A DNA stretch of 64,000 nucleotides, taken from Spongiactinospora rosea (lineage in GTDB: Bacteria; Actinomycetota; Actinomycetes; Streptosporangiales; Streptosporangiaceae). The DNA lies in assembly GCF_003315795.1 (NCBI RefSeq), contig NZ_QMEY01000012.1, positions 62,001 through 126,000 of the forward strand, written 5' to 3'. A model generated the notes under the pieces. The model saw only the letters and a program-made list of their open reading frames with translations, was not told where the DNA came from and did no database searches. Positions 8,788 to 30,979 of the stretch are shown in pieces. Numbering within the stretch: the first letter of the stretch is position 1; each line of letters begins with the position of its first letter. Position numbers and translations under genes: made by a program.

Positions 8788-9391
8788 CGACCCACGACCA
8801 GGGGGTGTGCGCCGCGGTGCACACCCCCGCCACCTCACCAAGATCAGATACCTTCAGCCTGCCTCCTTGGCACGGGTCCTTCAGTCTCGTACACGTATCC
8901 GCCGAGCCCCCCGACATGCCGGAAAAGCCTGCAACGGCAACCGGGCCAAAACCATGATCGTCGGTGCGGCGTTCACGCTTGCCGCCCTCGAGGGACCTGT
9001 CTAATCCGAAGTCAGGCGAACGTTCTCATGGCGATGCGGGAATTGTTCCTCGACCCGCACCACTCGCCTCCCCTTACCGTCCCTATTGGTCCTTGCTGAC
9101 CAATGGTGTTGCCAAGCGAGCCGGACAGGAAACGACCAGATCAGGAATCGCCGTTGTCGATGTGGACATCGTGTTCGGCGTGGGTGATCTGCGGCTACCG
9201 CGTTAAAGTTTCACTGCGAACCGATGTGCACGCCCGGCGTCTGCCCGGTTGGCAAGGCGGCGCAGGAAGCGGACCATACCTGGCCTTCGTACCTGTCCTC
9301 GAGCTGCTCGCTCGGCCGCTCCCCGTGGCCTATCTCGAAAAGCTCATTTAGCCCGCGTCGGATCAAGTCCATCGTGAACGTCGACACGCCC
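8788..9391. other. Non-coding or degraded stretch
   Basis: About 600 bases with no reading frame of convincing actinobacterial codon use; short open frames here (such as the one ending near 9206) have no recognisable content. It separates the plus-strand conjugation module from the minus-strand pPIWI operon and probably contains the terminators of both. Confidence 0.4.
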
Positions 9392-11971
9392 CTAGATCAG
9401 GTACTCATCAGCCAGGGATGGCAGATGGAGCGGCAGAGGAAGCGTTGAGGCGATGTCGGTGTGAAGGGCGGCGCGGCGAAGTGCTTGGGTGTACGTTGCC
9501 CAGTCCCGGCGGTCATCTCCGGGCTGGAGGAAGGCGGTGACAATCTCGATGGGGTTGGGGTTACTGCCCTGTTTGAGGGCGTTCCTGGCCTGGTCGGGAT
9601 CGAGTTTGGTGACCGTCAGAGGGGTCTGCATCTGGTCCGATCTGGGGTTCACCGCGTAGAAGACGTGGTCGTTGCACGGGTATACACCGCTTGTCCGGCC
9701 GTACGCTTCTTCCTTGACACCGAGCCCTCGGGGGACCTCTTCCTGGCTGTCACGCTCGCGGATGCGAATGACGCGAAGGCCGGGGCATTTCGCGGGCAAG
9801 AGGTACTCGACGGTGTCTTCTGCGGGGTTGCGGCCGGGTAGCACGAGGCTGTTTGGGGTGAGGTGCTGGTCTTGGAGCCAATCCCAGCCACGGGTACGGA
9901 AGGTACTGGTCCGGATGAACACGGCACGGTCATGGGTGGCCTGGTCGATGCCGAGTGCCGCGATGAGGAACTCGGCGATCCGGATCCGGAAGTTGCCGTC
10001 CTTCGGCCGGGGCAGCCTTCCCTGGCCGGCGGTCAAAGCGAAAGGCAGATCAGCGTAGGGCAATTCCTCGGTACCGTCACCAGTGGCGAGTTGGGCGGTC
10101 GCAGTGCCGTCGCTGGTGATGCGGACGACGATGGGAATGTCGGCGCCGTTGTGGGTCTCGAGCCAGATGCCGATCAGTTCGAAGTCACCCGTGATTCCAG
10201 GCGGGCCAGGAAGAACACCCACGCGCCCCAGGGAGCGCAGAGCGTCCTGAACCGCTGCGGTGGCGCGGTGAATGTCGCCCAGCGTGAACTGCGTCCCGGG
10301 GAGAGTCTTCTTGACCACCTTGGCATCGGGTTTCGGCACATAGTGGTTGATGGGATGTATGCACTGCAGGCGCCGGTTCAACGGCGGAAACGCCTGCTTC
10401 AGGACACTATAAGGATCATCCTTGTTGATCGCCTCGAAGTAGGCAGGGGTTCGGATTTCGACGATGGCAGCACGACGATCGACACTTCTGCCAATCACTT
10501 GTTCGATGTGTTTGATCCGGCGGGCCGCCTGGGTTCCCTGTCTCTCGCCTTTAGCTGGCCGGGGGATGCCTGCGGCCATGTCGCGCTGGTGGCGAAGTTC
10601 CACCGTTAGGTTGCACGGGCCGTTGAAGGCGCGGGTCTCGATGACCTCACCGTCATCTGCGGTCCGGGTAGTTGGAGTTGTTTCGTTGTAGCCGAGACCC
10701 TGCGTGATCGCGGCAAGGATGGCCTGCCTGGTGACCGGCGACTCAGTCCACAACTCGAGCGTGTAGGACGCCTGGGTGTCCGCGTCGGGACGGAAGAGGC
10801 GAGGCATGGCGGTCTTGGCTTCTTGAAGGTCGGGCACCGCCACGATTCCCAGTGGCTCCAAGATCTTCCCCATGCTGACGTGAAGGTCATAGTGGTCGAT
10901 CGGCAGAAACCCGGTCTTGGCCGCGTGCAGCACGGACTTCGATGTCTTGTCGTCGGCATCTTCATCATTCGGAGCGCTGAGCTTGGTGCCGGTGGAGTAG
11001 AGGGCGTAGGCGGACACCGGCTGATTGATGTAGGCCGCTGGAGCGATGATGACGTCATGCGGGTCAGGGAAGGTGTGATGGGTGAGGTGAGCCAGGGCCT
11101 GCGCTAGTCCAGGGTTCCAGGCCCACCGATAGCCATCATCGAAGCGGCGTCGCCCGATGCTGGCGCTCACGAGGGTGGGCTGCTCGGCCGCCCGCAGGTA
11201 ACCGCTGCCTGCGAGGAGCCAGAGCGTCATGCTTGGCGACCGGCCTCCTCTCGCGGGCACGTATCGAACGGGTTGCAGGGGGAAGCGGACAGTGCTGAGC
11301 TCGGCATGGACACGGGCTCGGCCGTGAGTCGGCACGGTCTCCACATGAAAGTCGATCTTTGGTGCCCACAGGCCTGCTCCGAGCTTGGGGTCGTCGAGGC
11401 GCTCGGGCGGCCACCAGATGGCGGAACGGTGACCGGAGTTGTCCACTGGGCCGAGGATGAACGAGCGGTGTTCTCCACGGATCTGCATCCCGGCGGCTGC
11501 GACGAGGCCAGCGAGGTAGCCAGGCAGCATCCGAAAGACGGCCGGGTCCGGTTTGGCGGTGCCATTCGGGTGGGTCCGGCTTGCGAGAAGGTCCAGTTCG
11601 GCCGACCGCCAGTCGAGTTCTTCGTCATCGAGCAGGTCGAACCAGTCTAGGTCCGGCCGCGCGGACGTGACGCGTGTCGAGGCCCAGACGGCGACGGCGG
11701 TGCGGATGACCTGCCGGTCGACGCGAGCGTGGCTAATGAGCCAGTACTCGTCGTCGACGTTGCTGGCAACGTGGATGATGTTGGGGTCCAGGGTGTTCAG
11801 GAGTTCGACGAGAGACCAGGTGGGCAGTTTGCGGTCATCCCCATAGGGGGCCTGGCTCCTGATTCGACGCAGCCACAGCCTCGGGAACCTTGCTGTCAGA
11901 CACGTTACCGGCAGCGACGCTCCGGAGGTGATCTCATAGGCGATGAGTCGGAGATGGTCGTAACGCGGCAT
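9392..11971 (-). CDS. pPIWI_RE protein (PIWI/RNase H-like, Argonaute relative)
   Basis: 859 residues. The C-terminal half matches the pPIWI_RE pattern as I know it: AAIVEIRTP (about 501-509), then DPYSVLKQAFPPLNRRLQCI (519-538), GDIHRATAAVQDALRSLGRV (565-584), LIGIWLETHNGADIPIVVRI (599-618), ELPYADLPFAL, and LRVIRIRERDSQEEVPRGLG (732-751), which holds the Arg-rich and EVP positions. The first ~380 residues would be the N-terminal module, followed by a MID-like region and the RNase H-like domain (about 500-859). The family is predicted to bind nucleic acid in defence against mobile elements. It is the last gene of a three-gene operon; its ATG overlaps the helicase stop (TGATG). The catalytic state cannot be judged by eye. 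Confidence 0.82.
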   Translation of the reverse strand: MPRYDHLRLIAYEITSGASLPVTCLTARFPRLWLRRIRSQAPYGDDRKLPTWSLVELLNTLDPNIIHVASNVDDEYWLISHARVDRQVIRTAVAVWASTRVTSARPDLDWFDLLDDEELDWRSAELDLLASRTHPNGTAKPDPAVFRMLPGYLAGLVAAAGMQIRGEHRSFILGPVDNSGHRSAIWWPPERLDDPKLGAGLWAPKIDFHVETVPTHGRARVHAELSTVRFPLQPVRYVPARGGRSPSMTLWLLAGSGYLRAAEQPTLVSASIGRRRFDDGYRWAWNPGLAQALAHLTHHTFPDPHDVIIAPAAYINQPVSAYALYSTGTKLSAPNDEDADDKTSKSVLHAAKTGFLPIDHYDLHVSMGKILEPLGIVAVPDLQEAKTAMPRLFRPDADTQASYTLELWTESPVTRQAILAAITQGLGYNETTPTTRTADDGEVIETRAFNGPCNLTVELRHQRDMAAGIPRPAKGERQGTQAARRIKHIEQVIGRSVDRRAAIVEIRTPAYFEAINKDDPYSVLKQAFPPLNRRLQCIHPINHYVPKPDAKVVKKTLPGTQFTLGDIHRATAAVQDALRSLGRVGVLPGPPGITGDFELIGIWLETHNGADIPIVVRITSDGTATAQLATGDGTEELPYADLPFALTAGQGRLPRPKDGNFRIRIAEFLIAALGIDQATHDRAVFIRTSTFRTRGWDWLQDQHLTPNSLVLPGRNPAEDTVEYLLPAKCPGLRVIRIRERDSQEEVPRGLGVKEEAYGRTSGVYPCNDHVFYAVNPRSDQMQTPLTVTKLDPDQARNALKQGSNPNPIEIVTAFLQPGDDRRDWATYTQALRRAALHTDIASTLPLPLHLPSLADEYLI

Positions 11972-14900
11972 CAGTGCCCCATGTCTCGGTTGCGGAACAG
12001 GTCATCAAGCAGGCCCCAGACGGCCTCGGCGATGGCATGGTCGCGGATATCTTCCACGGACGCGCTGTTTGCGGGCTCTTTGAGCAGCCGGGACAGATGT
12101 TGGTCGGCCGCCACGATCAGGCTGGTGCGGGGCGTGTCTGGTGCCCGCTCGTCCGGATCGGCATGTCGAGGAGCGAAGGCCGCGTCGGTAAGAATTATGT
12201 GCGTGGGCTGGTGGCCGCGGATGCTGCGTCCGATGGTTTGGCCCATCGGGACGAGAGCGTTGGCGACAAAGGCGGGCCGCTCGGTCCGGTCGTCCAGGCG
12301 GCGGAAGAACACCGGGCGGCTCATCAGGTTGTACCAGTCTGCGCGCGCCTTGTTGCCCAGCTTCTTGGCCGCTTCCGCGATCGAGGATAGGGGCGTCGTG
12401 GACGAGCCGCCGGCGGGGTCCATGAGGTAGGCCATGGCGCGCTGATTGATGAGGGAGAGCGGAAACTTGGGGTCGGTGGGCGGCGGGTGAATACGCGCCA
12501 AGTAGAACACCGCTCCGAGGGCGGCGGTGCGATTGGCGTTGAGGATGTTGTAGCCGCGTTGGATCGCCATCTCCGCGGCGACGAGAATGTCGTCTCCGGA
12601 CTCTGGAAATTTGGTGATCATTCGGCGGTGGAGGCCGTACTGGCCGGGATCGTTGGCGTCTGGGGTCACGTTGCGGGCGCGGTAGGGGGTTCTCAGGTTG
12701 ATGTGCTCGGCCACCAACTTCGCTTCAGCTCCGCTGAGCACGACGAACAAGACCTGCTTGCGGTCATCGTCAAGGTCAGCCCGTACTTGCTCCAGCAGGC
12801 TGACCACCGCTCCAGGCCGGGGCAGGCAGATCCCGCTGACGAGCTGCCGGAGGGCGTCGTTGCGTTCCGTTCCCTGCCGCCCGGACACCGCGATGGGCTT
12901 CTTACCGTCCGGGCGCAGGCTCTTTCGGAACCACAGCTTGCTTTGTGCCAACGCGCGCCTGTCCTCCAAGGGCTCCCGTAGGACCGCCGATGGGGGAATC
13001 GGGATGTGGTAGAACGACGAGCCCGGCGCCCAGCTGGTGGCCGAGGTGAGAATAACGTGCGGTCCCTGGATACCTTCGGGTTCCAAGAGGTCATGCATGT
13101 GGTGCAGGAGCCATCGACCGACGCCGCGAATCCACAGGATTCTCAACGCGCCGGTGTTTCCCCGCCGGTTGGGCAGCCACTGCAGCGCAAGTAGGTTGCC
13201 CATGGGTGCTTCAGGGATCAGCGGCTGGTAGTCGCGGGGAGGTTGCTGCCGCCAGAAAGTGTCCTCATCGTCCAGGGGCAGAGATTCGGCCACCGCCGGA
13301 TAGAGCGTGGACATTTCGAAGAACGACGTGGTGACGCGGCTCGCCCAAAATCCTGCTTGGAAGAGCATCGTAAGCATGGCAACATTAGCCCGAACATGAT
13401 CTTGTTGCCCCGGCGGAGCGTGTTCCACTAGCCAGTCGTTGATCGCCTCGTCGATGGCCTCTTCGTCGGGGATATCGGCTTGCAGCGCCGCGACCATCTG
13501 AGCGAACTGCTCGGGGACTGCGGTCAGGATGCCTTCGGTGAAGATCTCCAGGTGTTCGCGGAAGAAGTCGTCGGCAGCGTCCTCGAGCGCGGCGTTGTCG
13601 TCCATGCGCTTCAGCGGCAGCCCGTGCATCATTCGAGCGACCTGCAGCAGCAGCGAGAATCCGGTGAACGGCGCCTTTCCTATCACCTCGTACAGGCCTT
13701 GGTCGTTTAGGACGAGTTCGTACAGCTTGTCGATGGCGCGCTGGTGGATCCGGTCGTAGTCGTTGAACCGGATCACGTTGCGGTCCCGGAGCTGGAGCCG
13801 GCCGATCCGGTCGAAGCCGTTCACCTTGCTGATCGTGGTCCGGTCGGTCCAGCCCTCACCGGGGGCGACGAGGGTTTCGTACTGCACGAACCGGTCGTCG
13901 AGGTCCTGCTGTACGTTGTCCGCCTCGTCGATGATGATCAGGTCGCTGTGATGCTGACAGGCTTCGAGCCACCGCATCTTCGCCTCAGACGGCTCGGCCC
14001 GGCTGGCGACAAGACCGGGCGCGGTCGTCACCCACACCTGCGCGTGAGCGATGCGCCTCTCGGTCTCCTGATGGGGACAGACGGCTAGCAGCGGGCAATC
14101 GTGAATCTTGTTCTCGCCATCGGTGGAGCGCAGGGCGTTCCGGCAGGGAAAGTTCTCCGGCGAGAGTGGTGCCCACTCGGGATGGTTTGTCTCGCGCACT
14201 GGGTCGAGCAGGCAGATCGTGTTGACGAAGTCAGCCGCGGGATCATCGTCAGTGGGGAAGACACTGGGCGAGGTTGCCAGCGTCGACCGCCAGTACCGTG
14301 CGGCGTGTTCAGTGCGGCTGTTCTTACCGACCAGCGGCACGGCGTCGATCCCGACGCTGCGCAGAAACGACACTTTGGCATAGACATCGGTGACCGACCC
14401 GACTACCAGGGTGACGTGGTACCCCTTCTCGACTCGGTCCCCGGTCATCAGGTCGGCTAGCGTGGACTTGCCGCTGTTCATCAGTCCGACGATGTGCTCG
14501 ACCCCGTCGATGTCGAAGGTCTCGGGCATCTCGATGAGTTTGCCTGTCTCGTTGTCGACAGCACAGAAGACGATCTTGTCGAGGCGGTCGACCCAGTTCC
14601 GGTTCGTGATCTCAGGCTTGCCCGCAAGGACGCTATCGAAGCGCACGGCAACTGGTGCCAGATCCCCCTCGAAACTGATTCGCCAAGCGTCGCGCTCCCG
14701 ATGCTGCCGTAGCGTCAGGGCGGGAGGAGGCGGCAGTACCTTGATGTCCTTCGGGATGCGAACGCGTTCCTCGACCTTGTCCCGCCTCAAGACGGTGTAG
14801 AGCTTGCCCGGCTCAGCCTGCGGCCGCACGGGCTCCAGGGTGTGGACCACTGGATCGGTCAGCGCCGCCTCGTAGTAATCGAACCGCTGGGGACACACCG

Positions 14901-15276
14901 ACGAGCGATGTGGAACGAAACCGGTCTGATCGTTGATCTTCCGGGTCGGGTCATCTGTACGGGTGAAACCGCAGACCTCAACAGGCAGCCGCCGGTAGTG
15001 ATCGAGAGACAGTCGCCAGTACCCTCGCCGCCCCATGTCGCCCATCCGGTGCCTGAGCCTGCGCACCACTGGTTGGAGCTCAGGCTCCACGAGCACGTAG
15101 CCGGACAGGATCGGCCACAGTGCACCGATCGGTTCGCCTTCGAAGTGACGATGCAAGAAATGCAGGCCAAGTTCGAGCGCAACCAGATCACGTGCCGACA
15201 GACGCCCTTCCGGGAGGACATCGCTGTCCTTCAGTTCGTTCACCAGCTCCTCGCACCACGAGGAATGATCCCTCAT
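11971..15276 (-). CDS. DinG/XPD-like helicase of the pPIWI_RE island
   Basis: 1101 residues. Walker A is GLMNSGKST (264-272), Walker B DLIIIDEADN (445-454, a DEAD box), and a late helicase motif is GQTIGRSIRG near residue 1035. Between the Walker boxes lie four cysteines (355, 378, 394, 400) followed by HAQVWVTTAPGLV, the position of the 4Fe-4S domain in XPD/DinG helicases; an iron-sulfur cluster is therefore plausible. The N-terminal ~240 residues are an unrecognised specific domain. In the pPIWI_RE three-gene islands described by comparative genomics, a DinG-type helicase is the constant partner of the PIWI protein. It is coupled to both neighbours by overlapping start and stop codons. Confidence 0.8.
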   Translation of the reverse strand: MRDHSSWCEELVNELKDSDVLPEGRLSARDLVALELGLHFLHRHFEGEPIGALWPILSGYVLVEPELQPVVRRLRHRMGDMGRRGYWRLSLDHYRRLPVEVCGFTRTDDPTRKINDQTGFVPHRSSVCPQRFDYYEAALTDPVVHTLEPVRPQAEPGKLYTVLRRDKVEERVRIPKDIKVLPPPPALTLRQHRERDAWRISFEGDLAPVAVRFDSVLAGKPEITNRNWVDRLDKIVFCAVDNETGKLIEMPETFDIDGVEHIVGLMNSGKSTLADLMTGDRVEKGYHVTLVVGSVTDVYAKVSFLRSVGIDAVPLVGKNSRTEHAARYWRSTLATSPSVFPTDDDPAADFVNTICLLDPVRETNHPEWAPLSPENFPCRNALRSTDGENKIHDCPLLAVCPHQETERRIAHAQVWVTTAPGLVASRAEPSEAKMRWLEACQHHSDLIIIDEADNVQQDLDDRFVQYETLVAPGEGWTDRTTISKVNGFDRIGRLQLRDRNVIRFNDYDRIHQRAIDKLYELVLNDQGLYEVIGKAPFTGFSLLLQVARMMHGLPLKRMDDNAALEDAADDFFREHLEIFTEGILTAVPEQFAQMVAALQADIPDEEAIDEAINDWLVEHAPPGQQDHVRANVAMLTMLFQAGFWASRVTTSFFEMSTLYPAVAESLPLDDEDTFWRQQPPRDYQPLIPEAPMGNLLALQWLPNRRGNTGALRILWIRGVGRWLLHHMHDLLEPEGIQGPHVILTSATSWAPGSSFYHIPIPPSAVLREPLEDRRALAQSKLWFRKSLRPDGKKPIAVSGRQGTERNDALRQLVSGICLPRPGAVVSLLEQVRADLDDDRKQVLFVVLSGAEAKLVAEHINLRTPYRARNVTPDANDPGQYGLHRRMITKFPESGDDILVAAEMAIQRGYNILNANRTAALGAVFYLARIHPPPTDPKFPLSLINQRAMAYLMDPAGGSSTTPLSSIAEAAKKLGNKARADWYNLMSRPVFFRRLDDRTERPAFVANALVPMGQTIGRSIRGHQPTHIILTDAAFAPRHADPDERAPDTPRTSLIVAADQHLSRLLKEPANSASVEDIRDHAIAEAVWGLLDDLFRNRDMGH

Positions 15277-16502
15277 TGCTGCGCCACCTCCTCAGCTCTA
15301 GCAACGACGCCGGCAATAAAAGTGTCCTCGCTAACGACCGAGACACCCGACACTCTCCCCTGCAACTCGGCCCGCAGATCGGCGAAATAGCCAGGCTGGT
15401 CAGCGCGGTGTTTCGGCAATACCAGGAAGCGCCTGTCGCATGGTGGGTCGGGTCGCCATGTGAATCCGAGCCCCAAAAGACCCGGACTCACCTGATCCTT
15501 GGCGTCTGCGCCCCACACCTCGATCACGTCGCGTCCGGACAGGAACGACACCCGGATGTCGTAGGCGTCCAGGCCCGGCCACGCCTCGACGCTGATCGTT
15601 CTTTCCGCCGACATCTCGGCGAGACGATCCAGGATTCTAGCCTCGACCAGTCCGGGATCGTGGAAGAATCTCCTGGTCGCACGATGCTGAACGTAGTAGC
15701 CACCTACTGTGTCAATGACAAGAGCAACTCCGCGTCCACTGCAGCCCGTAGTGCCGCAGCCGTCGATGCCTTGCTGCGTCGGGTTACCGCATATGTCGCA
15801 GACATCGATTTTCACCTGCCCCTGAGATGCCCGATGCAGGTATGCCGCCTGGATGAAACGCTGCACAATCGGCTGCCCGTTACGCCCACACTTAGGAAGC
15901 CGGCCAGTGAGCCGACGTACCTTGACTTCGGTCAGGATGGGGTTGTCGATGAGGAGCCGACGTAGTTCACAGTAATGCGCTTGGACTTCGGCCTCGTCTT
16001 TCGCGTTCAATTCCGCGACGAGCATGAGCTCCCGGAACACCCGGTTCTCAACAAGCTCAGCCTCGACATCCCGGACCGACAGTCGCGTTGCCTGCTCCGC
16101 CATCGGCGTCAACTCGTCGCCGTCCAGCAAGCTCTGCTCAATGTCGGCCACCGACAAGCGTAGCCTGATCGGCCACTCGCTGAACGGCCTCCGGCACAGC
16201 TCGAAAAGCTTCAGATCGTTTTGCGGCGGAGTCTTCCCCGCGGTAAGGAACCGCCACCACAACCGGGTCATCCCCGACCGCCACGGCACGGGCAGCAATC
16301 CCTGCTCCGCTGACGTGCGCGTCAGGTACTCGCCTGCATCCATACGACGTCGATCATCCCTAATCCTTGCGAGCCCTGCCGCCAACAGCATTACGGTGAC
16401 GTAGTCACCGTCTTCCTCCCGGAACGACAGCCCCTCAGCCCAGCCAGCCGCATCCAATGCGGCCAACTGGACGTCGTTGTCCTTCGGCCCTGGCAGTGTC
16501 AC
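15273..16502 (-). CDS. Zinc-ribbon/REase-fold protein of the pPIWI_RE island
   Basis: 409 residues from GTG 16502, with GGAGGT about nine bases upstream; this is the promoter-proximal gene of the operon. Residues 1-230 are helical and of unknown function. A zinc-ribbon-like set of cysteines follows (C235, C238, C249, C254 in CDICGN...GCGTTGC). Residues ~283-400 resemble a restriction-endonuclease fold: E287 in LVEARI, D315 in LDAYDIRV and DAKD (333-336) after VIEVWGA, close to the D-(x)n-(D/E)xK arrangement. This matches the third, REase-bearing member of pPIWI_RE islands. It ends in a 4-bp overlap with the helicase. Confidence 0.75.
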   Translation of the reverse strand: MTLPGPKDNDVQLAALDAAGWAEGLSFREEDGDYVTVMLLAAGLARIRDDRRRMDAGEYLTRTSAEQGLLPVPWRSGMTRLWWRFLTAGKTPPQNDLKLFELCRRPFSEWPIRLRLSVADIEQSLLDGDELTPMAEQATRLSVRDVEAELVENRVFRELMLVAELNAKDEAEVQAHYCELRRLLIDNPILTEVKVRRLTGRLPKCGRNGQPIVQRFIQAAYLHRASQGQVKIDVCDICGNPTQQGIDGCGTTGCSGRGVALVIDTVGGYYVQHRATRRFFHDPGLVEARILDRLAEMSAERTISVEAWPGLDAYDIRVSFLSGRDVIEVWGADAKDQVSPGLLGLGFTWRPDPPCDRRFLVLPKHRADQPGYFADLRAELQGRVSGVSVVSEDTFIAGVVARAEEVAQQ

Positions 16503-16968
16503 CGCGACACCTCCGTCACGACGAACATCGAGTGGGACACTGCTCGATGGCCATGCGGCGGGGCACGACGGTTCGTGATAAGCAGTTCATCCATGGCTGT
16601 GAGACCTTGGTGGTGAGCCGCCTTCTCAGGCGGATAGTCCGAACTAGTCCAACCTGCCCTCGGACACCCAACGTCGCTCTCGGTGTGCCTTCGGCTGGGC
16701 TACGTGACCAAGGTACGCTCATCTACAGACAGTTTTCAGGTTGCCGGAGAAATTTAGGATGGCGTCTTACAGCTCGCAACGTCCGCATGAGCTCCGGGCT
16801 CTGACTGAGCGGATCCCGGACCAGCTGCGCGAACGCCCGGAGCAGCGCGCTGTCGTCGGCGCCTGGTTCAGCTCTTCCTCAGCGAGGTGCTGCGCAAGAA
16901 GTCCTAGTGCTGTAGCAGCTCGGGTTTGCCCTGTTTGACGTGAAACGCCGATCAAGGTCCCCCCTCAG
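16503..16968. other. Intergenic region upstream of the pPIWI_RE operon
   Basis: About 465 bases. The part next to 16502 should hold the promoter of the minus-strand operon, but I cannot pick a clear -10/-35. Around 16790-16910 the plus strand encodes a short plausible peptide (LTERIPDQLRERPEQRAVVG), and a second frame then reads LVQLFLSEVLRKKS to a stop. This may be a decayed gene end; no function can be named. Confidence 0.4.
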
Positions 16969-17718
16969 TCAGCGTGATCGCTCCAGACTCTGCTCGTGGC
17001 TGAACGGGTTCGTGTACGCGAGATCGATGACGATGAGGGAAACCGGCTGCTGCGCATCATCCGGCGTAGCAGCAGGTCGGTGCAGCGACACCAGCAACGC
17101 CGGCTGCTCCAGCTCCAACGCCACGTGCAACGCCAGATTGATCAACACCACCGACTTACCGACCGCCGGCCGCGCACCAACCGTGACGAGCTGCCCCGGC
17201 TGCAACCGGATCAGCAACTCGTCCGAGTCGGCCCAGCCCGTCGTCACCCCCGGCAACGGCTCACGCGACCCCAGCCGATCCACGTACGGCTGCACCAGCG
17301 CCGACATCGGCCGCTCCGTCGCGGCCTCGGCCACACCGGTCACCTCATCCAGCACCCGATTCACCGACTCGTGCCGGCCCTCCAGGTCCAGGGCCCGCTG
17401 AGCGTAGATCTGGCCGATCCGCGCCTCCGCCTCCAGGCCGTGCCACGTCCCGGCGCCTCCCGCAGCAGGGCCGATCCAGTGGCGGACGTTCACGGCGGTG
17501 GGCACCTGGCCGAGCAGGTCGGTCAGCGTAGCCGCACCGCCGACATTGGCCAGCACGCCGCGCCGCTCCAGGTGCCCCTTCACGGCGACGACGTCAGGAG
17601 CGGCGCCGCCAGCGGCGAGGGCCTGGATGCTCTCGAAGGTGAGCTGTGGGCGGGCCGGTAGAAGTCCGCGGGCCTTGACGGCCTCGAGGACCTCCTCGGC
17701 GGCGTCAGGGGTGAGCAT
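16969..17718 (-). pseudogene. DnaB-like replicative helicase remnant
   Basis: The frame encodes a DnaB N-terminal domain (e.g. AVLGAAMLTPDAAEEVLEAV, read partly upstream of the listed ATG) and the start of the RecA domain, including LQPGQLVTVGARPAVGKSVV (Walker A-like). After PALLVSLHRPA it jumps to VSLIVIDLAYTNPF, as if the segment between the SLEM-like strand and the Walker B strand were deleted, and it stops soon after. The total of 249 residues compares with roughly 450 for a full helicase. The frame is also open upstream of 17718 without a good start codon. It is most likely a broken element-borne helicase gene. Confidence 0.65.
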
Positions 17719-17822
17719 GGCCGCGCCAAGGACGGCGATCTCGACTTCCAGGTTGTGCGGGAGCAGGGCGCCGGGAGCGTCGGCCGGGGTCGGTGTGCTG
17801 TCAGGCGTGATGGTCAGGCGAT

Positions 17823-18142
17823 GAGGTGGACCTGCGGCTGGCCACGGCCAACCGCGGCATCTGGAAGGCCAGCGAGCCCCAGCGGATACTCGCCGAGCAC
17901 GGCCTGATCATCAGCGCCGGGAATATGTCAGAGCTTTGATCCGGCGAGCCGGCCAGCATCAAGCTCGACGACCTGGACGTCGTCCGCGCCGACTAGGTTG
18001 CGGAGTGGAGGAACTCCTCATTCCACAGCCGGAGAAGGTCCACCGGATCGGCGAGCACGAGCAGCCCGCCGCGGCGGCGTCCAGTGGTGGCCCCTTGGTG
18101 ACGCCCAAGCAGCTGGACGGCCGGTCCCCGCCGCCCCATTGA
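17823..18142 (+). pseudogene. XRE-type element regulator with stop and frameshift
   Basis: Translation from 17823 gives LRLATANRGIWKASEPQRIL, then IISAGNMSEL, a TGA at 17937-17939, SGEPASIKLDDLDVVRAD and a TAG at 17994-17996. Another frame continues with GCGVEELLIPQPEKVH. Joined, this resembles a helix-turn-helix regulator seen next to integrase genes in actinobacterial elements, where the usual text is close to MSxLWSGxPxSIKLDDLDVV. The first stop probably replaces a Trp codon, and the second break is a frameshift. The gene cannot make a full-length product. Confidence 0.55.
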
Positions 18143-18239
18143 GATGGGCCCCTCACCCGATCTGCCCGGCCAGTTGCGTCGACTGCCTGGCCTGGGGCTC
18201 CTTGAACGGGCGCCGCTGCGCCGCGCGTCTACATGGCGA

Positions 18240-18398
18240 TCATGAGCCTGGATCTGACCGGCGCTCTTGCAGGTGATCGCGGTAAGGATCGACGAGAGTG
18301 GGCCGGTAGCGCGGAGCGCGGCGCAATGCCTTGGGCTCGCAGGTGCGGGCGTAGCGCTTGACGGTGTTGAGGGACAGGTTCAGGTGGCGGGCGCATTC
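18240..18398 (-). pseudogene. Transposase helix-turn-helix fragment (ISL3-like)
   Basis: The minus strand encodes CARHLNLSLNTVKRYAR followed by RRAPRYRPTLVDPYRDHLQE, a pattern I associate with the linker after the helix-turn-helix of ISL3-type transposases. Only about 50 residues remain, directly abutting the recombinase fragment, so this is a scar of an insertion or recombination event. Confidence 0.5.
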
Positions 18399-18401
18399 CA
18401 G

Positions 18402-18863
18402 GAGGTCGAGGACCTCGACTTGGAGCACCGCCGCGCGCCTCTGCGGTCCAAGGGCGGCGCCGTCGAGTGGGTGTCTTGGGACCGCGGCAGCGCCCACCTG
18501 CTGCCCCGCCTGCTCCGGCTCCCGGACGGCAGCGCCCGTACGCACGGCCCGCTGTTCCTGTCCGAGCGGCGTCCGGTCCCGGCCCGTCGGCCCGGTCCCG
18601 GCGACATCTGCCCCCACACCGGCCGCGCCCGCCTCGGCTACGACCGCGCCCGTGTCCTGCTGGAGAAGTACGCCGGGCTCGATCTGCACCAGCTGCGCCA
18701 CAGCGCGGCCACCCACCTCGGCGAAGCCGAGATCCCGCTGCAGCTCATCATGGGCAAGACCCGGCACAAGAACCCCCGCACCGCCATGCGCTATGTCAAA
18801 CCCGGTGCCGAGGCCATCGCCAAGGTCACCGAGGTGCTGGCGCCCCGCCGCCGTACCCACTGA
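18402..18863 (+). pseudogene. Tyrosine recombinase (integrase) C-terminal fragment
   Basis: About 153 residues of a tyrosine recombinase catalytic domain. DLHQLRHSAATHLGE supplies the HxxR motif; LIMGKTRHKNPRTAMRYVKP supplies the second His region and the nucleophilic Tyr; the product ends at RRRTH. The N-terminal arm-binding and core-binding domains and the first catalytic Arg are missing, and the upstream sequence is replaced by a reverse-strand transposase scrap. It is probably the remains of the integrase of this or an older element. An intact integrase must be elsewhere if the island still moves. Confidence 0.7.
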
Positions 18864-19135
18864 TCAATTGAGTGGCGGCTCGCCGGAGCTATAGGAGTTC
18901 CGGGCCAAGACGGGGTGTGCCCGCCACGCTGTGGCGGATGATGGCGGCGGTGTGCTGCCCGCTGCATCACCTGGCTGGCCGGACACCGCAGCCCGGCTCT
19001 CGATCGACGTCAGCGAATTGGCAGATCCGCCGATCCACGGAGCGAAGCGATCGGCATCGCTCGCTCGCGTGGTTTCCGCGCTGCGCTTGGACGGTCTGCC
19101 GGGCGGCAGGTCTTGTTCTGTCAGTAGTGTCTGCC

Positions 19136-21207: not shown

Positions 21208-22782
21208 ATGGAAGTGACCCAGCAGGAGATTGAGAACCGGTTGTGGGATGCAGCCGACGAGTTGCGCGTTGCGATGCCCGAAGCGCAATACGCCTCCGTC
21301 ATCTTCCCGCTGATGTTCTGGAAATACCTATCGGATACCTGGGAGCACCAGCACGAGCTGTTCCTGGCCGAGAACGCGGGCTTGGACGGCCTATCTCCCG
21401 AGGAGGCCCACGAGATCGAGTACCGCGACTACCAGTCGTTCGAGATCCCGTTCATCCACCCTGGCACCGTCCACCAGCGTCGCGCCTCCTGGACGTCCAT
21501 CCTCGCCACCATCACCCAGCCGGGCCTCGGCCAGCGCATCCGCGCTTCCCTGCAAGCCATCGAGACGGCCAACCCTGACAAGTTCTCCCGCCTGTTCGGG
21601 TCCATGACCTGGACCTCCGAAGAGGTGCTGTCGGGGGAGGTGCTGGCGGCGGTCATGCAGACGATGGACCGCACCCCGAAGATGCACGAGGGCAACATGT
21701 CCCACGACGTCCTCGGTGGGGCGTACGAGTACCTGCTGAAGCGGTTCTCCGACGGGTCCGGCACCCGAGCCGGCCAGTTCTTCACCTCCCGCGAAGTCGT
21801 CGAGCTGATCGTCGAGGTCCTGGACCCCAAGGGCCACGAGTCGGTGTACGACCCGACCTGCGGATCGGGCGGCATGCTCATCGCCTCCGCGAACCTCCTG
21901 AAGGCCCGCGGCGGGCGGGGCTACACACTCAAGCTGTACGGGCAGGAGGCCGTACCGGACACAGCGGGCGTGGCCCGCATGAACCTCTTCATGCACAACC
22001 TCACCCAGTTCAAGGTCGAGGTCGGCGACACCCTGAAGGACCCGCGCTTCAAGAAGCCGGACGGGTCCGTCGCGCAGTTCGACGTGATCGTCGCCAACCC
22101 GCCCTACAGCCTGAAGTGGAAGCCCTGGACCAACGACCCGCGTGCCCTCGGCGGGGTCGCCCCGCCCTCGACGGCGGACTGGGCGTTCGTGCAGCACATG
22201 ATCGCCAGCATGAGCCCGAAGAAGGGACGCGCCGGCGTCGTCCTGCCCCACGGCGTCCTCTTCCGAGGCGGCCAAGAGGCAGCCATCCGCCAGCGCGTCT
22301 TGGACGATGACCTGCTCGAAGCAGTCATCGGCCTGCCTGCCAACCTCTTCTACAACACCACCATCCCCACAGCGATCCTGGTGTTCCGCGCACCCGGCAC
22401 CAAGGACCCGGAGCGGCAGGACGGCGTGCTGTTCATCGACGCCTCCAAGCGGTTCGCCAAGGCCAAAAACCGCAATATCCTCACCGACGCCGACATCGCC
22501 GACATCGTGACCGCCTACCACTCCAAGGTGGACGCCGACGACAACCCGGTGGACCCCGACGGAAAAGGCGGACTCGCGGCGCGATACGTCCCCACCACGG
22601 AGATCGCTACGAACGGATACGACCTCAACATCGGGCGGTACATCAAGCAGGCCGCGGCTGAACAGGAGGATCTGGCCACCCTCATCGACGCTTACAACCT
22701 CGCCCGCGTTGAACGTCAGAAGACCGAGGCTCGCATGCTGCAGGTGCTCTCCGCCGCGGGGATCAAGGGCTTTGATGACTAA
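21208..22782 (+). CDS. hsdM: Type I restriction-modification methyltransferase subunit
   Basis: 524 residues with a standard HsdM layout. The helical N-terminal domain begins QQEIENRLWDAADELR; the N6-adenine methyltransferase domain has SAM motif I VYDPTCGSGGML (213-224) and catalytic NPPY (297-300, in FDVIVANPPYS). The C-terminal tail would contact HsdS. It methylates adenine in the system's recognition sequence and forms M2S with HsdS. It is the first gene of hsdM-hsdS-hsdR and overlaps hsdS by 8 bp. No lesion is visible. Confidence 0.93.
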   Translation: MEVTQQEIENRLWDAADELRVAMPEAQYASVIFPLMFWKYLSDTWEHQHELFLAENAGLDGLSPEEAHEIEYRDYQSFEIPFIHPGTVHQRRASWTSILATITQPGLGQRIRASLQAIETANPDKFSRLFGSMTWTSEEVLSGEVLAAVMQTMDRTPKMHEGNMSHDVLGGAYEYLLKRFSDGSGTRAGQFFTSREVVELIVEVLDPKGHESVYDPTCGSGGMLIASANLLKARGGRGYTLKLYGQEAVPDTAGVARMNLFMHNLTQFKVEVGDTLKDPRFKKPDGSVAQFDVIVANPPYSLKWKPWTNDPRALGGVAPPSTADWAFVQHMIASMSPKKGRAGVVLPHGVLFRGGQEAAIRQRVLDDDLLEAVIGLPANLFYNTTIPTAILVFRAPGTKDPERQDGVLFIDASKRFAKAKNRNILTDADIADIVTAYHSKVDADDNPVDPDGKGGLAARYVPTTEIATNGYDLNIGRYIKQAAAEQEDLATLIDAYNLARVERQKTEARMLQVLSAAGIKGFDD

Positions 22783-23974
22783 GCTCACCGAGTGGGAGCC
22801 AGGCACCCTTGATGACGTCCTCGAACACGTCGATGTCCGCAACCAGGATAGGGAAGTTGACCTGGTTCTCAGCGTCACCGAGGGGCGGGGCATAGTCCCC
22901 CAGAGCCAGGTGTTCAACAAGAGGATCGCTACCGAAGACACGAGCAAGTACAAGGTGCTCCAGCCCCTCGACATTGCCTGGAACCCATACCTCCTCTGGA
23001 CCGGAGCTATCGGGCAGTGGCTTGGCGACACGGCTGGCATTACCTCTCCGGTTTACCCAGTTTTCCGTGTCCGCAAAGGGCAGAATGCGAGGTTCTGGGG
23101 GCTGGTCCTCGAAGGCGGTGTGCTCACCCCCTACTTCGGCAGTCGTGCGGTTGGCTCCATCGCCCGCCGCCGCCGTACGACTACGCCGGTCTTCAAGGAG
23201 GCCCCAACTTCCATCCCTCCTTTGCCGGTGCAAGAGCGAATCGTCGAGGTGATTAGCGCGGTCGACGACCAGATCACTGCACTCCACGCCGAGGCGGGAG
23301 GGTTGGCAGAGGTTCTGCGTCGCCGACGGGCTGACCTCTTCACCGACGACTCGGTCGAAGCCGTGAGAGCCGAGCACGTCTTCGACTTCTCCACCGGCGT
23401 GCGCCGGACACCTGACAGGGCGACCGGCCCGTACATGACGCCCTACCTCCGTTCCGCGAACGTCGGCTACGGGACGCTCGACCTGTCCGACGTGCTGGAG
23501 ATGAACTACGACCCAGTGGAGCGCGAGAAGTTTGGCCTCCGCTACGGCGACGTCGTGGTGTCCGAGGGCAGCGCAAGCGCGAATGCCGTCGGGATGCCTG
23601 CCATGTGGCGAGACGAGCTGCCGGGGCCTGTCTGTACACAAATGACCCTGCTCCGCCTCCGGGCGCTGGAAGGGGTCTGCATTCCTGAGTTCGTCTTCCA
23701 CTGGAGCATGTGGGCCTACGAATCCAGGGCCTTCCTCGACGTCGCGGGGGGCACCAATATCAAGCACATCAGCGCCAAGCGGGCGAAGGGCATGACTGTG
23801 CGCCTGCCGTCGCTCGACCGCCAACGCGAGATGGTGATCGAACTCGACGCGATGGAGTCTGTAGTGAAGGCGACCCGCGCGGAGGCCGCCCGTCTCCGTG
23901 ACGTTCGAGCGGGACTGATGGCGGGGCTGCTGGACCGCACGATCGAGATTGAGTCGGCCAAACTGGAGGTCTGA
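22775..23974 (+). CDS. hsdS: Type I restriction-modification specificity subunit
   Basis: 399 residues from ATG 22775. It has two target-recognition domains separated by conserved helical spacers: the first ends at SIPPLPVQERIVEVISAVDD (central coiled-coil, about residues 145-190), the second ends at VRLPSLDRQREMVIELDAME with a following helix. The TRDs set the bipartite DNA target and cannot be assigned a sequence by eye. It is translated in overlap with hsdM and ends three bases before hsdR. The two-TRD, two-spacer length is normal, so the specificity subunit appears intact. Confidence 0.9.
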   Translation: MTKLTEWEPGTLDDVLEHVDVRNQDREVDLVLSVTEGRGIVPQSQVFNKRIATEDTSKYKVLQPLDIAWNPYLLWTGAIGQWLGDTAGITSPVYPVFRVRKGQNARFWGLVLEGGVLTPYFGSRAVGSIARRRRTTTPVFKEAPTSIPPLPVQERIVEVISAVDDQITALHAEAGGLAEVLRRRRADLFTDDSVEAVRAEHVFDFSTGVRRTPDRATGPYMTPYLRSANVGYGTLDLSDVLEMNYDPVEREKFGLRYGDVVVSEGSASANAVGMPAMWRDELPGPVCTQMTLLRLRALEGVCIPEFVFHWSMWAYESRAFLDVAGGTNIKHISAKRAKGMTVRLPSLDRQREMVIELDAMESVVKATRAEAARLRDVRAGLMAGLLDRTIEIESAKLEV

Positions 23975-23977
23975 GCC

Positions 23978-26900
23978 GTGGCGAAGGGCATTCGGGAGCG
24001 CGAGTTCCAGAACCTGATGATCCAGTGGTCCCTCCCCATGGGCTGGACCTTCACCGCGGGCAGGGCGCTACCGCGTGAGACAACACAGACGGTGATGGCC
24101 AGCCTGTTGCGGGACGCCATCGTCCAGTTCAACCCCGGAGTGATAGACGGGTTCGACGTGGACGCGGTGGTCGAGGAGATCGCCGCCACGGTCAACGCCG
24201 TCGAGGGCGGGCTGGTGCGGGCCAACGAGCAGGTGCTGCGCCTGCTGCGCGGGTACAAGGAGTTCCGGGATGCCGACGGCGCGTGGCACGCCCTGAAGGT
24301 CATCGACTTCGAGCACCCGACTGCCAACACGCTGATCGTGTCGGACGAGGTAACCATCACCGTCCCCGGCAAGACCTCCCGCCGGTTCGACCTCGTGTAC
24401 TGGGTCAACGGCCTGCCCCTGGTCGTGGTCGAGGTGAAGTCGCCGACCACGAATTCTGGATGGGCAGACGCCGCCCGCGAGATCAACGACGTGTACGCCA
24501 CCGAGTACCCGTGGTTCTTCACCCCCAACGTCTTCGCCGTCGCCTCCGACGGGCTGAAGCTGCGCTTCGGTGCCGCCGGTGCCCCCACGAACCTGTGGCA
24601 GCCGTTCCGGTCCACCGCCGACGCCGAGAACCTGGCTGGGCAGGCCGACGTGCAGCGCTCCGTCGAACTGCTGCTCAACCCGGCCACCGTCTTGGACATG
24701 CTGGCGAACTTCGCCTTGTTCGACACCTCAGGAGGCGGGGTGGACACGAAATACCTGCCCCGCTACCCACAGATGGAGGCCGCCCACCTCATCCACCAGC
24801 GAGTCCTGGCCGGCGGCCGAAAAGGCCTGATCTGGCACCACCAAGGGAGTGGGAAGACGCTGCTGATGGTGTTCGCCGCCTCACTGATGTTGGCCGACAC
24901 CCGCACCGAGTCCCCCACGATCATCCTGCTCTCGGACCGGACCCAACTCGTCCGCCAGACCTCCGGGGTGTTCACCTCCGCCATGGGGAGCGCCTACTTC
25001 CACCAGCCCGCCACCAGCCAGGAGTTACGTTCCCTGCTGGCCGGCGACGTGCGCGGCGTCATCTCCACGACCGTCCACAAGTTCGCCGATGCCGGCAAGA
25101 ACCTGTCGGCCCGGGACAACATCATCGTGCTGGTCGACGAGGCGCACCGCACCCAGTCCGCCCGGTCGACGTCCCTGGCCGGGCAGATGCGCGCAGCGTT
25201 GCCGCGCGCGAAGTTCTTCGGCCTGACCGGCACTCCCGTCAGGAACCTCTCCACCGACACCTTCGCCCTCTTCGGTGAAGAGAGCGACCCGGGCAGGGTG
25301 CTGCACCGGTACTCGGTGTCCCGGTCTCTTCTGGACGGGGCCACTGTTCCGGTCCTGCTGGACCCGCACCCGGTCGCCTTCGATTTAGACGACCAGGCGT
25401 TGCAGGCTGAATTCGACCAGTTCGCCGATGACTTCGACCTCGACGACCCCGACCGTGAGCTCTTATCCCGCAAGTTCGGGCGTCTCACCTCGGTGTTCGC
25501 CAACCCCGACCGCATCCACGCGGTCTGCCAGGACATCGTGGACCACTACCTGGCCGGCGCCTACCGCAACGGTCTGAAGGCCCAGGTCGTCGCCTACAAC
25601 CGTGAGCTGGCCGTGGCCTACACAGACAAGATCAACGAGCTGCTGGCCGGTTTCGAGGCGTCACAGGTGCTCGCCGAGGTCGGTAAGCATGGCCGGATCA
25701 CCGCCGAGGTGAACATCTCCGTCTCGGACGCCAAGGGCGAAGATCCTGCCATGCGCCCGTTCCGGCTTTCGGAGGCCGAGGAGGAGGAGCAGAAGCGGCG
25801 GTTCCTCACCCCGGACGACCCGCTGTGCTTTCTGGTGGTGACCGCGAAGCTGATGACCGGGTTCGACGCCCCCAATGAGGGCGTCCTCTACCTGGACAAG
25901 CCGCTGAAGGCCCACAGCCTCTTCCAGACGATCACCCGCCCGAACCGTACCTGGGTGTCCCCGACCGGGTTCGTGAAGACCTCCGGCGTGATCGTGGACT
26001 ACATCGGGCTGGCCGAAGAGGTGCAGCGGGCCGTCGTCGATCCCACCTCGCCGGGCGCCGGTAAGGGCGGCGGGTTCGTCACCGACCTGTCCGAGCTCGT
26101 CGCCGAGTTCCGTACCACCTTCGCCCGCATCGAAGATCTTCTTGTGGACGTGGACGGACTGGACCTCACGGTTCACGGATACGAGTCAGTACGGGCCATC
26201 AACGCCTTCCTGGATGCCAACCCTGGCGCCGCTGAGGTGTTCAGCAAGGACTACCGGCTCCTGGCCCGCCTGTACCCGCTCATCAGCACCGACAGGCGGG
26301 TGGCCAAGTACCGGGACGGTTTCGGGCTGTTCGGGTCCGTGTACACGACCCTGTTCAAGAAGTCCTCCGACGAGGAGCGGAAAGAGCGGCTAAGTGAGCT
26401 GGGACCGATGGTCCTGGAGATCATCAACGCCCACGTCCACTCCTTCTCCGTGGTCGCCACCCGAGAGGAAGCCCTTGTCCTGGACGCGCAGGGCATCGCC
26501 ATCCTCAAGGAACTGATGGCCCTTGTCCGGCCCAAGCCCGGCAAGGACGGCGAGGACAAGAGGCCGCCGTCCGCAGCGGAGATCCTGGACCACATCAAGG
26601 CCGCCCTCGAAAAGGGCGTCGAACCGGGGTCCGCGAAGTACACCGCCCTCGCAGAGCGGATCAAGCTGCTGCGGGACCGGATCATTCAGAACGCAGAGGA
26701 CGCCCTGGAGTTCCTGTCCGAGGCACTCCGGATCGCTCGCGCCATCGTGAACGCCGGAAAACACCCCGACGAAGCCGTCGTACTAGACAACGACCACGTG
26801 GGAGTCCTGACGCGGATCATCCACGACCACGCACCTCCCGGCCTCACCATCACGGAAAGAAATCTGGCCGAGGAAATCGACCAGGTGGTCACCCGCACCC

Positions 26901-27049
26901 TCGCCCGGTCATGGGACAACGCCGACGCCCGCAACCGCGGCGTCCGTCGCGCCACCGCCGCAGTCTTCCGCAAGTACGCACTAAAGCCGGTGGGAGAGCC
27001 ATATGACTCCACCGTCGCCTACATCGAAGCCCACTATCTAGTCGACTGA
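23978..27049 (+). CDS. hsdR: Type I restriction endonuclease subunit
   Basis: 1023 residues from GTG 23978. The N-terminal nuclease domain carries D138 in RRFDLVYW and E152/K154 in VVVEVKSP (PD-(D/E)xK). The translocase follows, with Walker A HHQGSGKT (about 287-294) and DEAH in VDEAHRTQ (387-390), then helicase motif III-like GLTGTPV and motif VI region TITRPNRTW. The C-terminal helical domain contacts M2S. The enzyme cuts unmethylated DNA after ATP-driven translocation. The full length and all motifs indicate an active restriction system. Confidence 0.93.
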   Translation: MAKGIREREFQNLMIQWSLPMGWTFTAGRALPRETTQTVMASLLRDAIVQFNPGVIDGFDVDAVVEEIAATVNAVEGGLVRANEQVLRLLRGYKEFRDADGAWHALKVIDFEHPTANTLIVSDEVTITVPGKTSRRFDLVYWVNGLPLVVVEVKSPTTNSGWADAAREINDVYATEYPWFFTPNVFAVASDGLKLRFGAAGAPTNLWQPFRSTADAENLAGQADVQRSVELLLNPATVLDMLANFALFDTSGGGVDTKYLPRYPQMEAAHLIHQRVLAGGRKGLIWHHQGSGKTLLMVFAASLMLADTRTESPTIILLSDRTQLVRQTSGVFTSAMGSAYFHQPATSQELRSLLAGDVRGVISTTVHKFADAGKNLSARDNIIVLVDEAHRTQSARSTSLAGQMRAALPRAKFFGLTGTPVRNLSTDTFALFGEESDPGRVLHRYSVSRSLLDGATVPVLLDPHPVAFDLDDQALQAEFDQFADDFDLDDPDRELLSRKFGRLTSVFANPDRIHAVCQDIVDHYLAGAYRNGLKAQVVAYNRELAVAYTDKINELLAGFEASQVLAEVGKHGRITAEVNISVSDAKGEDPAMRPFRLSEAEEEEQKRRFLTPDDPLCFLVVTAKLMTGFDAPNEGVLYLDKPLKAHSLFQTITRPNRTWVSPTGFVKTSGVIVDYIGLAEEVQRAVVDPTSPGAGKGGGFVTDLSELVAEFRTTFARIEDLLVDVDGLDLTVHGYESVRAINAFLDANPGAAEVFSKDYRLLARLYPLISTDRRVAKYRDGFGLFGSVYTTLFKKSSDEERKERLSELGPMVLEIINAHVHSFSVVATREEALVLDAQGIAILKELMALVRPKPGKDGEDKRPPSAAEILDHIKAALEKGVEPGSAKYTALAERIKLLRDRIIQNAEDALEFLSEALRIARAIVNAGKHPDEAVVLDNDHVGVLTRIIHDHAPPGLTITERNLAEEIDQVVTRTLARSWDNADARNRGVRRATAAVFRKYALKPVGEPYDSTVAYIEAHYLVD

Positions 27050-30882: not shown

Positions 30883-30905
30883 AGGTCGATCGCCAAGTGA
30901 TCGGG

Positions 30906-30979
30906 TGCGCCGCCAGGGACTCGAACCCCGGACCCGCTGATTAAGAGTCAGCTGCTCTGACCAACTGAGCTAGCGGCGC
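30906..30979 (-). tRNA. tRNA-Lys(CUU)
   Basis: On the minus strand the acceptor GCGCCGC pairs with GCGGCGC. The D arm contains AGCTCAGTTGGTCAGAGC, the anticodon loop GACTCTTAATC gives CUU, and the T arm carries GGTTCGAGTCC. The 3' CCA is not encoded (ACCC follows the acceptor). Its 3' end faces the mobile region on the left, consistent with use as an integration site. Confidence 0.95.

What the first reader, a model, noticed from the sequence alone, without database searches (positions are those of the whole stretch)
9392..16502. Complete three-gene pPIWI_RE island (Argonaute-related defence candidate)
Three overlapping minus-strand genes encode a Zn-ribbon plus REase-fold protein, a DinG-like helicase and a PIWI/RNase H-like protein with the IRIRE...EVP region. 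This matches the three-gene pPIWI_RE architecture known from comparative genomics, whose mechanism was, to my knowledge, not worked out experimentally. The frames are intact and translationally coupled, and the operon sits in a conjugative island beside a type I RM system.
Basis: partly seen in the sequence, partly recalled or inferred. Interest (0 to 1): 0.85.

Follow-up and report, generated by a model that had tools for sequence, protein, structure and literature searches.

The report
Argonaute-related three-gene defence cassette (pPIWI_RE)
A soil actinobacterium carries, beside conjugation genes, an intact copy of a known but barely tested three-gene set (an Argonaute relative that seems to have lost its cutting residues, a helicase and a DNA-cutting enzyme) that probably finds and destroys invading plasmids or phages.

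Summary
Window 9392-16502 (minus strand) is a complete, intact pPIWI_RE island in the canonical order REase, DinG-like helicase, PIWI; the six Pfam pPIWI_RE models pass their cut-offs and the three PADLOC 'Ppr' models hit strongly. Sphaerisporangium melleum shares exactly this operon plus about 250 bp upstream (88% DNA identity, unrelated flanks), and all three genes are under purifying selection (dN/dS 0.12-0.13): a mobile, functional cassette. New detail: helicase and nuclease motifs are conserved, but the PIWI protein lacks both RNase H aspartates (T619, R687 instead) while keeping guide-pocket residues. I infer a guide-binding, non-cutting PIWI that directs a helicase and a PD-(D/E)XK nuclease to invader DNA, as in DdmDE/ApsAB. 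A structural resemblance of the REase protein to DdmD (Z 5.4) is only a weak lead. It is a new member of a known kind (Burroughs 2013; PADLOC 'Ppr'). The same genome holds a second, divergent pPIWI_RE locus with an extra Cas4/RecB-like nuclease gene, also already modelled in PADLOC.

The parts
15273..16502 (-). Gene 1: Y domain + zinc ribbon (C235, C238, C249, C254) + PD-(D/E)XK nuclease (E287, D312, D315, D333, K335), 409 aa, GTG start
   Evidence: PF18156, PF18154, PADLOC PprRE; all listed residues invariant in 17 homologues; AF2 model with an alpha-beta-beta-beta-alpha-beta order in the nuclease part
11971..15276 (-). Gene 2: DinG/XPD-like SF2 helicase with N-terminal Z domain, 1101 aa
   Evidence: PF18155, PADLOC PprDinG; Walker A GLMNSGKS (264-271), four Cys of a presumed Fe-S cluster (C355, C378, C394, C400), DEAD (450-453), SAT (745-747), QTIGRSIRG (1013-1021); key residues invariant or nearly so in 19 homologues
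9392..11971 (-). Gene 3: pPIWI_RE protein (X domain, MID, RNase H-like), 859 aa; predicted to bind a guide but not to cut
   Evidence: PF13111, PF18157, PF13032, PADLOC PprPIWI; residues 8-586 resemble Argonautes; T619 and R687 replace the beta1 and beta4 aspartates, D519/K525/Q536 of MID retained in the window clade
16503..16751 (-). Upstream region that travels with the operon; probable promoter/leader
   Evidence: Block of 88% identity with Sphaerisporangium runs 9373-16751 and stops there; no sigma-70 consensus, no significant RNA fold in the window copy
21208..27049 (+). Type I restriction-modification genes hsdM, hsdS, hsdR; a neighbour, not shown to be part of the system
   Evidence: Pfam/PADLOC/NCBIfam; same hsd family (82-88% identity) sits head-to-head with a window-clade operon in one Streptomyces lineage but is absent from most relatives

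Best explanation
The locus is an intact, selectively maintained, horizontally moving three-gene pPIWI_RE island. Inferred mechanism: the PIWI protein binds a short guide by its 5' end in the MID pocket and pairs it with invading DNA, but does not cut, because its RNase H active site is lost. It then brings in the DinG-like helicase, which opens or travels along the DNA, and the zinc-ribbon PD-(D/E)XK protein, which cuts it. Shown here: family, gene order, intact frames, selection on all three genes, conserved helicase and nuclease motifs, lost PIWI aspartates (by alignment), mobility of the cassette. Inferred: guide use, complex formation, order of events, and that plasmids or phages are the target.
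For: Pfam/PADLOC hits for all domains. dN/dS 0.12-0.13 for all three genes. Cassette in unrelated flanks in several genera: Sphaerisporangium beside McrBC, Actinomadura, Streptomyces. REase motif and zinc ligands invariant in 17 sequences. Helicase motif residues invariant or nearly so in 19. T619/R687 in place of the RNase H aspartates, non-acidic in all 10 window-clade proteins, while an Azospirillum homologue has D at both aligned positions and a Nostoc one at the second. MID pocket residues conserved. Modelled PIWI residues 8-586 match Argonautes best (CpAgo Z 7.6, MpAgo Z 7.5; SPARSA 193 residues at rmsd 4.0). REase model's best matches are DdmD chains (Z 5.0-5.4, about 176 residues). DdmDE and ApsAB, which combine an Argonaute-like protein with a helicase-nuclease, eliminate plasmids (PMC12409362, PMC11096173).
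Against: No experiment on this triad. The DdmD resemblance is below the level the tool calls meaningful (Z under 8), rests on a model of pLDDT 64, has no Foldseek significance and no sequence support. The RNase H part was not modelled, so the catalytic positions rest on alignment alone. The studied PsPIWI-RE does cut, and its knockout gave a DNA replication stress phenotype; a defence phenotype has not been reported.
Confidence: 0.55

Rival explanations
1. R-loop sensor (Burroughs 2013): the PIWI protein recognises DNA-RNA hybrids of transcribed invading DNA without a dedicated guide set; the DinG helicase unwinds or travels along them and the REase cuts the DNA.
For: Original model of the family (PMC3702460); DinG-like helicases act on R-loops; PsPIWI-RE works only with DNA/RNA hybrid guide-target pairs (PMC10991935). 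Lost RNase H residues fit a sensor as well as a guide reader.
Against: PsPIWI-RE can be programmed with short guides in vitro. Differs from the preferred model mainly in where the guide comes from, which sequence cannot decide.
Confidence: 0.25
2. Housekeeping role in replication or DNA repair rather than defence: the triad helps finish or restart replication.
For: The P. stutzeri piwi-re knockout survives ciprofloxacin about 15-fold less well and forms filaments (PMC10991935).
Against: Patchy, mobile cassette: only 13 of 201 genomes of the family have any match to the PIWI protein; borders end at the operon; neighbours include McrBC, type I RM and, by eye, a cytosine methyltransferase; it sits beside conjugation genes.
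Confidence: 0.1
3. pPIWI_RE and the neighbouring type I RM form one system, the RM methylation marking self and the PIWI triad attacking unmarked DNA.
For: Same hsdMSR family divergent from a window-clade operon in four Streptomyces genomes and, 4.7 kb away, in the window; two other relatives have a different type I RM within about 4-8 kb.
Against: The four Streptomyces blocks are about 90-95% identical, so one lineage. HsdM/HsdR are 84-88% identical to the window's while PIWI/DinG are 37-44%, so they did not diverge together. Unlinked Streptomyces hsdR are closer to the window's (up to 91%). Most cassettes lack it.
Confidence: 0.06
4. A passenger or decaying remnant without present function.
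For: Neighbours are debris: truncated DnaB and integrase ORFs at 16969-18863.
Against: All three frames are intact with dN/dS 0.12-0.13 and the REase and helicase catalytic motifs are conserved.
Confidence: 0.04

Closest known systems
Three-gene pPIWI_RE island (Burroughs, Iyer, Aravind 2013; PADLOC 'Ppr')
   Same: All domains, strict gene order REase-DinG-PIWI, overlapping termini, conserved R and E, patchy mobile distribution
   Different: Nothing in architecture. It belongs to a divergent actinobacterial clade (PIWI 21-24% identical to the other three-gene, four-gene and single-gene types aligned), lacks the RNase H aspartates and lacks PADLOC's fourth component PprPDDEXK
PsPIWI-RE of Pseudomonas stutzeri (PMC10991935)
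   Same: PIWI-RE protein encoded just downstream of and overlapping a dinG gene
   Different: PsPIWI-RE has catalytic D525/D610 and cuts; the window protein has no aspartate at the RNase H positions inferred by alignment. The PsPIWI-RE sequence was not at hand for a direct alignment
DdmDE (Vibrio cholerae) and ApsAB (E. coli) plasmid-elimination systems
   Same: Parts list: Argonaute-like protein, SF2 helicase, PD-(D/E)XK nuclease; best structural neighbours of the REase model are DdmD chains (weak)
   Different: Helicase and nuclease are one polypeptide there and two here; no sequence similarity detected to the solved DdmD/DdmE chains
Catalytically inactive long-B pAgos with associated effectors
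   Same: Guide-binding Argonaute relative without slicer residues beside separate effector genes
   Different: Different domain families (X domain instead of N/PAZ) and different effectors (from general knowledge, not tested here)
Four-gene pPIWI_RE subtype with PprPDDEXK (present in the same genome, L028)
   Same: Same three core genes in the same order
   Different: Carries a Cas4/RecB-like nuclease gene upstream of the REase; forms a separate clade of the helicase tree

Membership tests
pPIWI_RE three-gene island | PIWI protein with X, MID and RNaseH_pPIWI_RE domains | tested here: met
   PF13111, PF18157, PF13032 above cut-off
pPIWI_RE three-gene island | Absolutely conserved Arg and Glu | tested here: met
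   R733, R736 and E809 invariant in 13 diverse proteins; spacing R736-E809 is 73, against 79 for R639-E718 in PsPIWI-RE
pPIWI_RE three-gene island | DinG-type helicase with Z domain and Cys-rich iron-binding region | tested here: met
   PF18155, PprDinG, four invariant Cys
pPIWI_RE three-gene island | Protein with Y domain, zinc ribbon and REase fold | tested here: met
   PF18156, PF18154; four Cys and E/D/D/D-x-K invariant
pPIWI_RE three-gene island | Fixed order REase, DinG, PIWI with overlapping or close termini | tested here: met
   4-nt and 1-nt overlaps
pPIWI_RE three-gene island | RNase H catalytic residues (retained only in a subset of the family, so not required for membership) | tested here: not met
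   T619/R687 at the aspartate positions
pPIWI_RE three-gene island | Restriction of invasive DNA | not testable with these tools
   Needs plasmid and phage assays
PADLOC Ppr, four-gene form | Fourth gene PprPDDEXK next to the REase gene | tested here: not met
   No hit to a profile of the fourth gene in the first 35 kb of the window, nor in the 14 other three-gene loci scanned
DdmDE / ApsAB | Helicase and PD-(D/E)XK nuclease in one polypeptide | tested here: not met
   Two separate genes here
DdmDE / ApsAB | Homology to DdmD or DdmE | tested here: inconclusive
   REase model to DdmD Z 5.0-5.4 but no Foldseek significance and no sequence hit
Argonaute superfamily | N/L1/PAZ-like plus MID plus PIWI arrangement | tested here: met
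   Residues 8-586 match pAgos and PIWIs best, Z 6-7.6; PIWI part by profile only, not modelled

The most novel reading that the evidence does not exclude
pPIWI_RE triads, DdmDE and ApsAB are branches of one family of plasmid-destroying systems, and the pPIWI_RE REase protein is the detached counterpart of the C-terminal nuclease region of DdmD. The window cassette would then be a split DdmDE-like anti-plasmid weapon carried by a conjugative element against its competitors.
Probability: 0.2. Interest if true: 0.7.

Novelty: new member of a known kind. Interest (0 to 1): 0.42.

Why it matters
pPIWI_RE was described from genome comparison in 2013, and in the papers I could read the whole triad has never been tested for defence. 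The window clade gives a sharp, testable prediction: a non-cutting PIWI with a separate, intact helicase and nuclease, in a compact 7.1 kb cassette with clean borders and relatives in Streptomyces, where plasmid and phage assays are routine. If confirmed, it would tie an orphan Argonaute branch to the DdmDE/ApsAB type of plasmid elimination.

Tried and rejected
AF2 model of the PIWI protein: RNase H part unusable (pLDDT below 50), probably for lack of alignment depth (10 sequences). Sequence search of solved structures with PIWI, DinG and REase queries: no Argonaute, DdmD or PD-(D/E)XK match (weak P-loop and cytochrome hits are taken as chance). Leader RNA: an 8-bp inverted repeat (ACCTTGGT/ACCAAGGT) seen by eye in the 5' leader, but fold z-scores are -0.3 and -0.9 in window and Sphaerisporangium and the fold differs in Actinomadura, so no structured RNA is claimed; Rfam finds only the tRNA. 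Joint system with type I RM: rejected as obligatory. tRNA-Lys attachment site: the tRNA at 30904-30979 is the edge of synteny with a congener, but no 3'-end copy was found to its left in contig C4 from 22001 on, so att sites are not claimed. The fourth-gene subtype looked new until PADLOC was found to hold a PprPDDEXK model. Phages: no relative among 50,697 records; plasmids: one weak match, in Nostoc.
Full report
What is there. Three minus-strand genes at 9392-16502 overlap by 4 and 1 nt. In order of transcription they encode a Y-domain/zinc-ribbon/REase protein (409 aa), a DinG-like helicase with Z domain (1101 aa) and a pPIWI_RE protein (859 aa). Pfam's six pPIWI_RE models pass their cut-offs and PADLOC's PprRE, PprDinG and PprPIWI hit strongly. 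The frames contain no stop, and against the closest relative dN/dS is 0.13, 0.12 and 0.13 for PIWI, DinG and REase, so all three proteins are maintained by selection.

Setting. To the left of the operon lie PrgI, TraC-like and TraG/TrwB-like ATPases, a replication-relaxation protein and an NlpC/P60 protein, i.e. conjugation genes. To the right lie truncated DnaB and integrase ORFs, a DUF4379 protein and a complete type I RM system. GC is lower from about 8 to 32 kb. The tRNA-Lys at 30904-30979 marks a right edge: from 30900 on, a congener is collinear (80% identity), to the left it is not. No left attachment copy was found.

A mobile cassette. Against S. melleum the 88% DNA match runs from 9373 to 16751, the operon plus about 250 bp upstream, and stops at both ends; there the neighbour is McrBC. 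An Actinomadura sp. KC216 copy (DinG 88% identity) and seven Streptomyces copies (DinG 41-46%) were found by name; pairs of them share just the cassette. In 344 Streptomyces genomes about 15 loci score in this clade's range. Four Streptomyces loci carry the operon head-to-head with hsdMSR of the same family as the window's (82-88%), but these blocks are about 90-95% identical to each other and count as one lineage. Since Hsd proteins are 84-88% and PIWI/DinG only 37-44% identical between that lineage and the window, and unlinked hsdR genes are closer to the window's, the association recurs but is not a fixed part of the system.

Active sites. In 17 REase proteins the four zinc-ribbon cysteines and E287, D312, D315, D333 and K335 are invariant, a complete PD-(D/E)XK site; the AF2 model (pLDDT 64) shows the matching order of helices and strands. 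In 19 helicases the key residues of the Walker A, DEAD, SAT and QxxGRxxRG motifs and four cysteines are kept. In the PIWI protein the beta1 and beta4 aspartates of RNase H are T619 and R687; no window-clade member has an acidic residue there, while an Azospirillum homologue has D at both and a Nostoc homologue at the second. MID residues D519, K525 and Q536 are kept throughout the window clade. Prediction: a guide binder that does not cut. This rests on alignment, because the RNase H part was not modelled.

Structure. Residues 8-586 of the PIWI model match Argonautes and PIWI proteins above all else (CpAgo Z 7.6, MpAgo Z 7.5, SPARSA 193 residues at rmsd 4.0). For the REase model the four best matches are all DdmD, the helicase-nuclease of the V. 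cholerae plasmid-elimination system DdmDE (Z 5.2-5.4, about 176 residues, DdmD 920-1190). The Z value is in the range the tool calls unremarkable, Foldseek gives no significance and no sequence search supports it. It is a lead, not a result.

What is known. Burroughs et al. 2013 defined the family and proposed DNA-RNA hybrid-directed restriction (PMC3702460). Huang et al. 2022 showed that a P. stutzeri PIWI-RE, whose gene overlaps dinG, is an RNA-guided DNA and DNA-guided RNA nuclease, and that its loss raises ciprofloxacin sensitivity (PMC10991935). DdmDE and ApsAB combine an Argonaute-like protein with a helicase-nuclease and remove plasmids (PMC12409362, PMC11096173). I found no paper that tests the whole pPIWI_RE triad; many subscription papers and all preprints were out of reach.

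Likely working. The PIWI protein would bind a guide and pair it with invader DNA; the helicase would open or travel along the DNA; the REase would cut. The parts list, the lost slicer residues next to an intact separate nuclease and the mobile, defence-rich settings support this; the guide source, the target and the complex are inferred. The R-loop model of 2013 is the main rival and differs mostly in the origin of the guide.

A second locus. The same genome has another, divergent pPIWI_RE operon (G000:C23, L028) with a fourth gene upstream of the REase gene: a PDDEXK_1 protein with an E-x-K nuclease motif and a Cas4/AddB-like cysteine cluster. This gene was present in all 20 further loci taken by helicase rank and absent from the 15 three-gene loci scanned, and its carriers form one clade of the helicase tree (26 of 26, support 0.93). 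PADLOC already holds a model for it, PprPDDEXK, so this is a known component, though I found no paper describing it.

Verdict. Observation confirmed, interpretation supported with corrections, new member of a known kind. Interest is moderate: the specialist would not be surprised by the locus, but the clade offers a clean test of an open question.

Noticed in passing
L028 (G000 contig C23), 9639-18936, minus strand: Second, divergent pPIWI_RE operon in the same genome, with a fourth gene (PDDEXK_1/PprPDDEXK, 544 aa) upstream of the REase gene. Invariant D414, E427-x-K429, Q447 and C306...C520-x2-C523-x5-C529 (numbering of the matched stretch) suggest an active Cas4/AddB-like Fe-S nuclease; the N-terminal half has a similar set of cysteines (C262, C265, C271).
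   Followed up: yes
26 loci, e.g. L034, L036, L037, L141-L160: The fourth gene is present in every scanned member of one clade of the pPIWI_RE helicase tree and in none outside it, so the family splits into three-gene and four-gene subtypes.
   Followed up: yes
L120 (Streptomyces sp. BB1-1-1 plasmid NZ_CP134205.1), 1803-10877: Plasmid-borne pPIWI_RE-type triad followed, with overlapping ends, by a 227-aa protein of unknown family and an Mrr-type restriction endonuclease: a possible five-gene variant.
   Followed up: partly
L119 (Azospirillum oryzae plasmid NZ_CP054617.1), 3913 to the end: RNaseH_pPIWI-type protein of about 3,250 residues downstream of an 'ATP-binding protein' gene; it has D at both aligned RNase H positions. 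The rest of this giant protein is unexplained.
   Followed up: no
L030 7103-10615 and L031 6594-10046: pPIWI_RE proteins of 1150-1170 aa with an N-terminal extension of about 320 aa without Pfam match, each preceded by a small overlapping ORF (77-82 aa); no DinG or REase match nearby.
   Followed up: partly
L053 (Streptomyces sp. MNU76), 10001-14604: The helicase gene of a window-clade operon is interrupted by an inserted 393-aa ORF (apparently a transposase), a natural disruption.
   Followed up: no
window 18872-20773: 633-aa protein with five DUF4379 treble-clef repeats and, by eye, a Vsr-like endonuclease stretch; a further defence candidate next to the type I RM.
   Followed up: no
window 16969-18863: Truncated replicative DnaB helicase (249 aa) and tyrosine recombinase (198 aa) ORFs between the pPIWI_RE operon and the RM genes: probably debris of other mobile elements.
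   Followed up: no
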